A DNA stretch of 54,127 nucleotides, from NCBI GenBank assembly GCA_026713825.1, contig JAPONS010000061.1, forward strand, positions 1 to 54,127, written 5' to 3'. The notes under the pieces were generated by a model. The model was not told the origin of the DNA. It made no database searches and was given only the letters and a program-made list of their open reading frames with translations. Of this stretch, positions 51,462-53,940 are shown piece by piece. The stretch's first letter is position 1. Every line of letters starts with the position of its first letter. This stretch comes from Chloroflexota bacterium. GTDB taxonomy: Bacteria > Chloroflexota > Dehalococcoidia > Lucifugimonadales > UBA1127. The position numbers and the translations under genes are program-made.

Positions 51462-51592
51462 GACATCATCCTCATTTTGTAACTATGTCTATTGTGGGGG
51501 ATAAGAAGATGTTTGGCAAGGCGATGACATTATCCGCACTGATTGAAGGGTTGGAGGTGGGCAAGGCTAGTCGTCTTTTTTCGGTAATCCTT

Positions 51593-51702
51593 GCCCTGCC
51601 CTGCCTTGCCATGCCGTGCGGTACCGGGCCACACCATGCCCTACCACGCCGTGCGGCACCCTGCCCCAACTTGCCCTACCGGGCCGAGCCGTGCCTTGCA
51701 TC
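51593..51702. repeat. Pentanucleotide array 1 (RCCNN)n
   Basis: 22 consecutive 5-bp units without a phase break. Most read GCCNN or ACCNN (GCCCT, GCCTT, GCCAT, GCCGT, ACCGG, GCCAC...), a few deviate (GCGGT, AACTT). The array begins right at the stop codon of the RAMP-like gene. Nothing else stands out in 51462-51592. Confidence 0.8.
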
Positions 51703-52297
51703 AGGATTCTGCCGTCAGGTTCTCAACCTCAAACCGACCATACTCGCCTGACTTTTCCGGTCGCCAGTCACCCAAGCCAATACGACGGCCAGCAATGTCC
51801 AGCCATTGCCGGAGTTGCGCTTCATCCACAAGATCGTCTTCCGTATCCACTTGGAATGTCACTGCCCACGGTAGTCCAAACATGGGCCGTGTTCGCATCA
51901 TGCGACTGCGTTGTACCACGACCACTGCGCGAAACTGAGTGCTGGCCTGGAGCGTCTCCAAGTCCGTCCCGTATCTCTCTTCATCGTACTCAAGGCGGGT
52001 GTTGATCACCGTCAACCCTTCCCGTACTTGGCCACCCTGCTTCAGCTTTTTTGCGGCGGTCTCAAGGCATGAGCGGATCGCCGCAGCCGGGACCGTCGGG
52101 CGGTTACCGGAGTCGAGCCAGAATCCGAGGAGGGTGTCGAGTTCGGCGATTCTGGCGTCGTCGGACGCAGTTCGGTTGCTCCCCTTCTTCCGCGTGATCT
52201 CTGCCTTCTCAATGTTGGCTGGGTGCTTGGAGTCGACTCCAAGGGATGAGTGTTGGATAAGCGGAGAGAGGCCTTTGATCCTGACGTCGTATAGCAT
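51701..52297 (-). CDS. Unassigned protein with RAMP-like features
   Basis: 198 aa. I cannot name a family. It begins YDVRIKGLSPLIQHSS, has a PTVPAAAIRSCLETAAKKL helix segment, and ends with a glycine-rich stretch IGLGDWRPEKSGEYGRFEVE. The order (LSPL..., an IPxxxLR-like segment, terminal Gly-rich loop and GRFEV strand) resembles Cas7-type RAMP proteins, but no cas gene is near and the resemblance is by eye. ATG 52297 follows a GAGAGG box. It overlaps the end of the HNH frame and ends exactly where pentad array 1 starts. Confidence 0.6.
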   Translation of the reverse strand: MLYDVRIKGLSPLIQHSSLGVDSKHPANIEKAEITRKKGSNRTASDDARIAELDTLLGFWLDSGNRPTVPAAAIRSCLETAAKKLKQGGQVREGLTVINTRLEYDEERYGTDLETLQASTQFRAVVVVQRSRMMRTRPMFGLPWAVTFQVDTEDDLVDEAQLRQWLDIAGRRIGLGDWRPEKSGEYGRFEVENLTAES

Positions 52298-52566
52298 TCC
52301 TGAACCGTCCTCTCAATAATGCTGATGACTTCCCAGATGTTCCCGTGAAACCGCCTTACCGTCGTTGCCATCTTGTGGCAGATGCCGCAAAGGGCGGTCA
52401 GGTCCTCGGCTGTCGTCTCGGCGGCGGGCAGGTAGCGTTCACGCCAATGATGCGCCTCCGTCGCTTCCCGCTGGCCACAGAACTGGCATTTGCCGTCCGA
52501 GCGACGAAACGCATCCGCTTTGGCGGAGAGGTATGCCGGATGCGAGTAGTCAAAGGAGTTGCTCAC
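52042..52566 (-). CDS. HNH endonuclease-like protein
   Basis: 174 aa as read. RRSDGKCQFCGQREATEAHHWRERYLPAAETTAEDLTALCGICHKMATTVRRF contains the HNH site: two CxxC pairs for zinc, AHH for catalysis and the final CxxCH. That lies in residues ~15-75. Start GTG 52566 with GAGG 8 bp upstream; a GTG at 52602 lies inside pentad array 2. Beyond ~residue 90 the frame overlaps the RAMP-like gene by 256 bp, and its translation (Ser/Arg/Thr-rich) looks like a shadow. The HNH protein may really end earlier after a frameshift. The domain is secure; the extent is not. Confidence 0.7.
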   Translation of the reverse strand: MSNSFDYSHPAYLSAKADAFRRSDGKCQFCGQREATEAHHWRERYLPAAETTAEDLTALCGICHKMATTVRRFHGNIWEVISIIERTVQECYTTSGSKASLRLSNTHPLESTPSTQPTLRRQRSRGRRGATELRPTTPESPNSTPSSDSGSTPVTARRSRLRRSAHALRPPQKS

Positions 52567-52587
52567 ACTTGCCGCCTCGTTTTCCTT

Positions 52588-52672
52588 GCCATGCCGGGCC
52601 ACGCCTAGCCATGCCTTGCCGTACCATGCACTGCCACGCCTCGGCGGGCCTGGCCGCGCACTGCCATGCCGC
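52588..52672. repeat. Pentanucleotide array 2 (RCCNN)n
   Basis: 17 units in perfect 5-bp phase (GCCAT, GCCGG, GCCAC, GCCTA, GCCAT, GCCTT, GCCGT, ACCAT...), ending GCCAT GCCGC as array 3 does. It lies directly upstream of the HNH start; GTG 52602 falls inside it. Confidence 0.8.
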
Positions 52673-52714
52673 GGGTGCTCAGGATACGATCTTCAGTGCG
52701 GACCAAGTCAAGGG

Positions 52715-52740
52715 GTTTTAGAATATTTTTTCTCTAAAAC
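52715..52740. repeat. AT-rich inverted repeat
   Basis: GTTTTAGA (52715-52722) and TCTAAAAC (52733-52740) around a T-rich loop, 4 bp before the GC-rich hairpin at 52745. Confidence 0.5.
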
Positions 52741-52744
52741 ACAA

Positions 52745-52780
52745 GACGGGGCTGGCCGGAGATATCCGGCCAGCCCCGTC
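52745..52780 (-). terminator. Strong hairpin, terminator-like on the minus strand
   Basis: A perfect 16-bp stem GACGGGGCTGGCCGGA / TCCGGCCAGCCCCGTC with a 4-base loop. Read on the minus strand it is followed by TTGTGTTTTAGAG. No protein gene lies upstream on that strand within the window's reliable part. Confidence 0.55.
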
Positions 52781-52930
52781 GTAGTACGTCGTAGTACGAT
52801 GTTCCCGTCCGCGTGCACGCCCTTACGACAAGCTCAGGGGGACGGGTTTCGCGCGGAGGCCATATGAAGAATCCTCCTGATCCTTTATCGCACCCTGGAT
52901 TTTCCGGCCTCGCCGTGAGGAGTTAACCAA

Positions 52931-53015
52931 GCCATGCCGTGCCACGCCCAACCTTGCCTGACCGGGCCATGCCGTGCACTACCATGCCGCGCCTCACCAT
53001 GCCATGCCATGCCGC
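52931..53015. repeat. Pentanucleotide array 3 (RCCNN)n
   Basis: 17 units in perfect phase: GCCAT, GCCGT, GCCAC, GCCCA, ACCTT, GCCTG, ACCGG and so on, ending GCCAT GCCAT GCCGC. The 52567-53354 stretch has no protein gene; besides arrays 2 and 3 it holds two hairpins and REP-like sequence. Confidence 0.8.
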
Positions 53016-53071
53016 AGGGTTAAAGGATATAGCTGCCTTGCATAGATTTTCAAGGCAGAAAGCACCTGATT

Positions 53072-53085
53072 TACGAACATTCGTA
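53072..53085. promoter_or_regulatory. Short palindrome, LexA-box-like
   Basis: TACGAA-CA-TTCGTA, a perfect 14-bp dyad apart from its centre. It resembles the GAAC-N4-GTTC SOS box loosely; no target gene is obvious. Confidence 0.25.
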
Positions 53086-53096
53086 CAAAAAGAGAA

Positions 53097-53125
53097 GAGG
53101 CCAGCTACAAATAGCAACTGGCCTC
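53097..53125 (-). terminator. Rho-independent terminator, minus strand
   Basis: GAGGCCAG / CTGGCCTC stem with a 13-base loop, followed on the minus strand by TTCTCTTTTT. No minus-strand gene is visible upstream before the unreliable contig end. Confidence 0.55.
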
Positions 53126-53270
53126 AACCTTAGGGATACTGAGTGGTCGACGAGAAAACCCACAGGCCATTTCAGCAGCCCTGCCGACTAGTCCTATTGT
53201 AGTGTAGTATAGCGTCCCCGGTGAAGCACCCCCCGTAGTACAATGGCACTCCGTCCCTGCGGGTATCTGG

Positions 53271-53290
53271 ATACCGGCCTGCGCCGGTAT
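53271..53290. repeat. REP-like palindrome
   Basis: ATACCGGC-CTGC-GCCGGTAT, preceded by GGGTATCTGG and followed by GACGGG. It has the form of the common intergenic REP-type element that ends in a genome's ...GGAATGACGGG motif. Confidence 0.55.
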
Positions 53291-53354
53291 GACGGGCGTT
53301 TGATGTGTGTGTATGCGCCCGTGGGGGCGAATCCGTTGTTGCGAGGCTGTTGAT

Positions 53355-53832: not shown

Positions 53833-53940
53833 GGGGGGGGGGGGGGGGGGGGGGGGGGGGCGGGGGGGGCGGCGCGGCGCGGGCGCCGCGCGGGGGGCGG
53901 GGGGGGCGGCCCCCCGCGCCGCCCCCCCCCCCCCCCCCCC
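53833..53940. other. Poly-G/poly-C tract, probable assembly artefact
   Basis: 28 consecutive G (53833-53860), more G-rich sequence, then 19 consecutive C (53922-53940). It breaks a conserved gene mid-domain and looks like low-quality or misjoined reads. In the 187 bp after it I see no gene I can support and no continuation of MmgE/PrpD in either strand. Confidence 0.75.

What the first reader, a model, noticed from the sequence alone, without database searches (positions are those of the whole stretch)
51593..53015. Three degenerate 5-bp-period arrays (RCCNN)n around an HNH/RAMP-like pair
Arrays at 51593-51702, 52588-52672 and 52931-53015 keep strict 5-bp phase over 17-22 units while the last two bases of each unit vary freely. 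Two frame the HNH and RAMP-like genes exactly: one starts at the stop codon, the other covers an HNH start. This is not simple slippage of a fixed repeat; selection seems to keep CC every half helical turn. Possible roles: a protein-binding track, a recombination or insertion target, or a structured RNA (GGY every 5 nt on the minus strand). I know of no described element of this form.
Basis: seen in the sequence. Interest (0 to 1): 0.75.

Follow-up and report, generated by a model that had tools for sequence, protein, structure and literature searches.

The report
Chromosomal VIPR guide-RNA locus with HNH
The three odd 5-base-period arrays are guide-RNA genes of a VIPR system, a CRISPR-like RNA-guided DNA-recognition machine first described in a 2026 preprint, here sitting in a bacterial chromosome beside its guide-binding protein and an HNH nuclease.

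Summary
Three arrays of RCCNN (GGYNN on the minus strand) lie at 51589-51695, 52584-52670 and 52927-53013. They are far beyond chance and are the only ones in this genome. They sit beside a RAMP-fold protein and an HNH protein on the same strand. Searching viral contigs with the DNA pattern alone returned 120 contigs; 91 encode a homologue of the RAMP protein within the fetched locus, and 6 more elsewhere in the record. None of 91 array-independent viral loci does. The family is PHROG 4652; its solved member is 'SUSP1 Vipr protein' (PDB 36pp). So this is a VIPR system (PMC13142463, preprint 2026): Vipr binds vrRNAs built of GGY/NN repeats whose NN letters specify a DNA target with a 1-nt skip. 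This copy is a 1.3-1.8 kb insertion between a DEAD-box helicase gene and an MmgE/PrpD gene; four same-genus genomes lack it. An HNH-Vipr pair with arrays recurs in two relatives of the same class. The kind is now described; this is a new chromosomal member with an HNH accessory gene. No natural target was found.

The parts
52927..53013 (-). vrRNA-like array 3, 18 units; NN (5'->3'): GC AT AT AT GA GC AT AG AC AT CC CA AA TG GT AC AT TT
   Evidence: phase score 15.5, 17/18 units
53024..53053 (-). sigma-70-like promoter TTGAAA-18-TATCCT, 10 nt before array 3
   Evidence: consensus match only
52745..52780 (-). terminator-like hairpin (16 pairs) between array 3 and array 2
52584..52670 (-). vrRNA-like array 2, 18 units; NN: GC AT AG GC CA CC GA GT AG AT AC AA AT TA GT CC AT AA; preceded by TTGACT-19-TATCCT
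   Evidence: phase score 10.5; promoter-like boxes read from sequence
52042..52566 (-). HNH endonuclease-like gene, candidate vap; HNH domain about 52345-52524; C-terminal part of the frame overlaps vipr
   Evidence: Pfam HNH 21.5 bits vs cut-off 21.4; PHROG HNH families; recurs directly upstream of vipr in 7 other loci
51701..52297 (-). vipr gene, 198 aa, RAMP fold
   Evidence: phmmer to PDB 36pp SUSP1 Vipr E=3.1e-10; profile E=1.9e-38; PHROG 4652 E=3.3e-32; AF2 pLDDT 96.6, fold hits Csm3/Cas7 Z 12.6
51589..51695 (-). vrRNA-like array 1, 22 units; NN: AA AC TC CC AG AA GG AG GC AC GT AG AT GT CC AC AC AT AA AG AG AA; starts about 6 nt after the vipr stop
   Evidence: phase score 14.5, 19/22 units
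51501..52786 (.). first inserted segment (array 1, vipr, HNH, array 2, terminator), absent from same-genus genomes
   Evidence: collinearity with G001/G002 stops at 51500 and resumes at 52787 (G001)
52864..53329 (.). second segment (array 3 and its promoter) between ancestral-looking 52787-52863 and 53330; repeat-rich, boundaries approximate

Best explanation
The arrays are vrRNA genes of a chromosomal VIPR system. Each is transcribed on the minus strand into an RNA of 18-22 YNNGG repeats. Vipr, a single-domain RAMP related to Cas7/Csm3, coats the RNA with a 5-nt register set by GGY, leaving each NN to pair with target DNA, one target base being skipped between dinucleotides. The HNH protein encoded just upstream is the likely accessory nuclease that cuts the bound DNA, so the locus most likely acts as guide-directed defence against a phage or other mobile element. 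Shown here: the arrays, the protein family, the fold, the strand and neighbourhood association across many phages, the insertion. Taken from PMC13142463 for homologues: RNA expression, binding to Vipr, 1-nt skip code, DNA targeting. Inferred: expression here, cleavage by HNH, defence role.
For: Vipr identity. RAMP fold. Array-Vipr association found by DNA pattern alone: 91/120 viral loci plus 6 records against 0/91 control viral loci. Same strand for 306 of 311 array segments (a few loci are duplicates, one 'opposite' is a poly-G artefact). Unit composition GG-Y(95%)-N-N over 5095 units, matching the published GGY/NN. Vipr found by protein similarity alone also has arrays beside it: Gordonia phage Trine, LESphi2, a Bradyrhizobium plasmid, MakoManhole, SAR202 bin22, G177, G337, G215, G183, and SUSP1 itself. 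HNH-vipr pair in 8 loci, three in one 100% supported clade. Promoter and terminator matches on the minus strand framing array 3.
Against: No natural target for any of the three guides: none of 91 seed matches in IMG/VR extends beyond chance, flank match 0.246; none in 250 genomes of the order. The arrays (18-22 units, 1-3 off-consensus) are longer than the 9-16 reported, and no conserved 3' tail is evident among the three. My own test of the skip rule on fetched viral loci was at best suggestive (12 one-skip matches at 4 mismatches against 4, 4 and 2 for the other skips). HNH is a borderline Pfam hit. An Azospirillum locus has Vipr without a detectable array. The source is one preprint.
Confidence: 0.9

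Rival explanations
1. VIPR locus acting as a transcriptional silencer rather than a cutting immune system: Vipr-vrRNA blocks transcription of a resident or invading element and HNH is incidental or regulatory.
For: Published type II VIPR represses without cutting (PMC13142463). HNH is absent from the sister Vipr locus in SAR202 bin22, so it is not essential to the clade.
Against: HNH is directly upstream with 54-63 nt spacing in three related loci; the preprint links nuclease-bearing types to host defence.
Confidence: 0.3
2. DNA-level element: the array is a protein-binding track, origin or recombination site for the RAMP-like protein.
For: Phage viprs often lie among recombination and replication genes (Sak4-like, RecT-like, YqaJ-type exonuclease, DNA pol I; most names from my reading of the sequences). 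Helical half-turn spacing.
Against: Array strand follows gene strand 306:5; homologous arrays are transcribed and co-purify with Vipr (PMC13142463); closest fold is crRNA-binding Csm3/Cas7; NN letters vary freely, which a DNA-binding track would not need.
Confidence: 0.04
3. A decayed, inactive VIPR remnant.
For: 1-3 off-consensus units per array, no targets found, HNH frame runs into vipr.
Against: Vipr and HNH frames are intact, G-loop GLGDWRP..GRF kept, AF2 confidence high, promoter-like boxes before arrays 2 and 3.
Confidence: 0.12
4. Simple-repeat slippage or assembly error.
For: The same contig has a poly-G/poly-C artefact at 53833-53940.
Against: Free variation at two of five positions with fixed phase; same pattern in unrelated phages; Vipr linkage.
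Confidence: 0.01

Closest known systems
VIPR systems (Viral Interference Programmable Repeat; PMC13142463, SUSP1 Vipr PDB 36pp)
   Same: Vipr protein homologous over its full length; GGY/NN arrays flanking vipr on the coding strand; minimal locus with one extra gene; occurrence in prokaryotic chromosomes is stated in the preprint (25.5%).
   Different: Longer arrays (18-22 units vs 9-16 reported for the studied clades), no evident shared tail, HNH accessory gene; the preprint's type could not be assigned because its supplement was not readable here.
Class 1 CRISPR RAMPs (Csm3/Cas7)
   Same: Fold, G-rich loop (VIA Z 12.6 with Csm-complex subunits).
   Different: No cas genes and no CRISPR repeats at the locus; single small RAMP; 5-nt register instead of 6.
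PHROG 4652 (phage protein, unknown function)
   Same: Window Vipr matches over residues 4-192 at 3.3e-32.
   Different: Only a family label; function not annotated there.

Membership tests
VIPR system | Vipr-family RAMP protein | tested here: met
   phmmer to 36pp E=3.1e-10, profile E=1.9e-38; fold
VIPR system | GGY/NN tandem repeat arrays next to vipr | tested here: met
   three arrays on the vipr strand
VIPR system | 9-16 repeats per vrRNA | tested here: inconclusive
   18, 18 and 22 phased units; processed ends unknown, and the preprint allows a related consensus and other array architectures in other types
VIPR system | invariable structured 3' tail | tested here: inconclusive
   no clear common tail among three arrays, no significant folding; the structured tail is shown in the preprint for the SUSP1 clade
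VIPR system | vap accessory gene in the locus | tested here: met
   HNH gene directly upstream, recurring in 7 other vipr loci; whether HNH is one of the preprint's six named vaps could not be checked
VIPR system | vrRNA transcription and co-purification with Vipr | not testable with these tools
   needs RNA-seq and pull-down; only promoter/terminator-like sites seen
VIPR system | 1-nt skip DNA targets | tested here: inconclusive
   no extending match in IMG/VR or in 250 genomes of the order
CRISPR-Cas class 1 | CRISPR array with identical repeats and spacers, cas genes at the locus | tested here: not met
   only degenerate 5-nt units; neighbours are DEAD helicase, Rieske and MmgE/PrpD genes
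Structured RNA family in Rfam | match above gathering score | tested here: not met
   none in the window

The most novel reading that the evidence does not exclude
An HNH-armed chromosomal VIPR lineage in this bacterial class (relatives include a SAR202 Chloroflexota MAG), moving as a small insertion between housekeeping genes without phage genes, that cuts DNA under a noncontiguous guide code: a host-domesticated immune VIPR with long guides.
Probability: 0.35. Interest if true: 0.65.

Novelty: new member of a known kind. Interest (0 to 1): 0.5.

Why it matters
VIPR is months old and known from a preprint. A compact chromosomal HNH-Vipr locus with three guides and clean empty sites in sister genomes is a good test case for the claim that hosts turned viral VIPRs into immune systems. 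The pattern-first search also shows, without starting from protein homology, that GGYNN arrays and Vipr travel together.

Tried and rejected
Rfam scan of the window: nothing. Plasmid DNA search: nothing. PADLOC (2023) has no model for Vipr or this HNH. Target decoding with the 1-nt skip rule: six IMG/VR seed scans gave 91 seed matches, with chance-level flanks; three 12-unit patterns with up to 3 mismatches in 250 order genomes gave none; own genome none for array 3. Skip-rule test with 503 array pieces against 1.18 Mb of fetched loci: only copies of the same phage and a weak excess for one skip. Rejected: structured RNA, simple repeat, CRISPR array. One script failed on a bookkeeping error. 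Foldseek/VIA did not list PDB 36pp itself, whose entry is probably newer than that library (April 2026).

Full report
Observation. On the plus strand CC recurs every 5 bases in three tracts, 51589-51695 (19 of 22 units), 52584-52670 (15/18) and 52927-53013 (17/18). In 200 Markov sequences of the same length and dinucleotide make-up the best such score never exceeded 6, against 14.5, 10.5 and 15.5 here. In the whole 2.64 Mb genome all matches to the phased pattern, with up to three mismatches, lie in these tracts. On the minus strand, which codes for the neighbouring genes, the unit is GGYNN.

The neighbours. The 198-aa protein (51701-52297, minus) matches PHROG 4652, a phage family of unknown function, and homologues in many phages and a few plasmids. 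The HNH protein upstream has the CxxC...HH...CxxCH pattern. The window's flanking genes are a DEAD-box helicase, a Rieske oxygenase and MmgE/PrpD, not phage genes; the window holds no tRNA.

Recurrence. A homologue in another genome of the order (G052) is followed by about 1 kb of GGYNN arrays separated by related linkers in a phage-like contig. Over 5095 units the third base is C or T in 95%, and the last two are near free. An HMM of the RAMP family finds it in 91 of the 120 loci and in 6 more of the whole records; three of the rest are simple repeats. Ninety-one viral loci fetched for other reasons contain no such protein and no array. Arrays and gene share a strand in 306 of 311 segments, the nearest downstream array lying at a median of 76 bp.

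Identification. A profile of 75 family members matches one solved protein, 'SUSP1 Vipr protein', PDB 36pp, at 1.9e-38; the window protein alone matches it at 3.1e-10. The AlphaFold2 model (pLDDT 96.6) resembles Csm3/Cas7 subunits (Z 12.6). The preprint PMC13142463 describes VIPR: Vipr plus vrRNAs of 9-16 YNNGG repeats, NN read with a one-base skip on double-stranded DNA, mostly in viruses and proviruses but 25.5% in prokaryotic chromosomes; seven types, with predicted nucleases or helicases as accessory proteins in types III-V. My array detector, run on SUSP1 as a positive control, finds an array upstream and another downstream of its vipr; the preprint reports one upstream and three downstream, so the detector misses some.

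This locus. Array 3 has a promoter-like site 10 nt upstream and a strong terminator-like hairpin downstream; array 2 has TTGACT-19-TATCCT upstream and ends 18 nt before the likely HNH start (GTG at 52566); array 1 follows the vipr stop. Same-genus genomes have the helicase and MmgE genes adjacent: collinearity with G002 breaks at 51500 and resumes at 53330, with 78 bp in place of 1.83 kb; G001 retains a piece equal to 52787-52863, so array 3 may be a separate insertion; G003 and G004 also lack it. The sister Viprs are in G177 and G337 (both HNH-vipr-arrays; in G337 between what read as ribonucleotide reductase subunit genes) and in SAR202 bin22 (59% identity, arrays upstream, no HNH); the four form a fully supported clade. 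In this sample HNH directly precedes vipr in 8 loci and needs several gains or losses on the tree. Vipr is rare in the class: 6 of 393 genomes.

Mechanism. By homology the RNAs should load Vipr subunits every 5 nt and read NNxNN in DNA. HNH makes cutting the likely outcome, which is inference. The arrays do not fold beyond shuffled controls, as expected for guides. No target was found in IMG/VR or the order, which leaves the direction of attack open; the relevant phages may simply be undersampled.

Verdict. Real, strong, but of a kind described in 2026. New member, with HNH accessory, long guides and a chromosomal insertion as its points of interest.

Noticed in passing
window 53833-53940: Long poly-G then poly-C run inside the MmgE/PrpD gene, breaking similarity with relatives; looks like a sequencing or assembly artefact.
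   Followed up: no
L277, L278, L279 (G183 C1 near 246670, 269028, 816440): Three near-identical copies (99.99% over at least 7.7 kb) of an element with a primase-like gene, a serine recombinase, vipr and one array in one 1.47 Mb genome: an apparently mobile VIPR carrier.
   Followed up: partly
window 52042-52297; L274 4247-4783; L275 3429-4055: The HNH reading frame stays open far into vipr in all three relatives (about 255 nt in the window); overprinting or a GC-rich open frame by chance.
   Followed up: no
L039 6054-7007: G052 phage-like contig has about nine GGY arrays separated by similar TTCTYYCAY...AA-TTCAACG linkers, a long guide array.
   Followed up: partly
window 52787-52863 and 53233-53330: Dispersed repeat-like palindromes (CGTAGTACAATG..., CTTACGACAAGCTCAGGG, GGATACCGGCCTGCGCCGGTATGACGG) lie in and beside the insertion.
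   Followed up: partly
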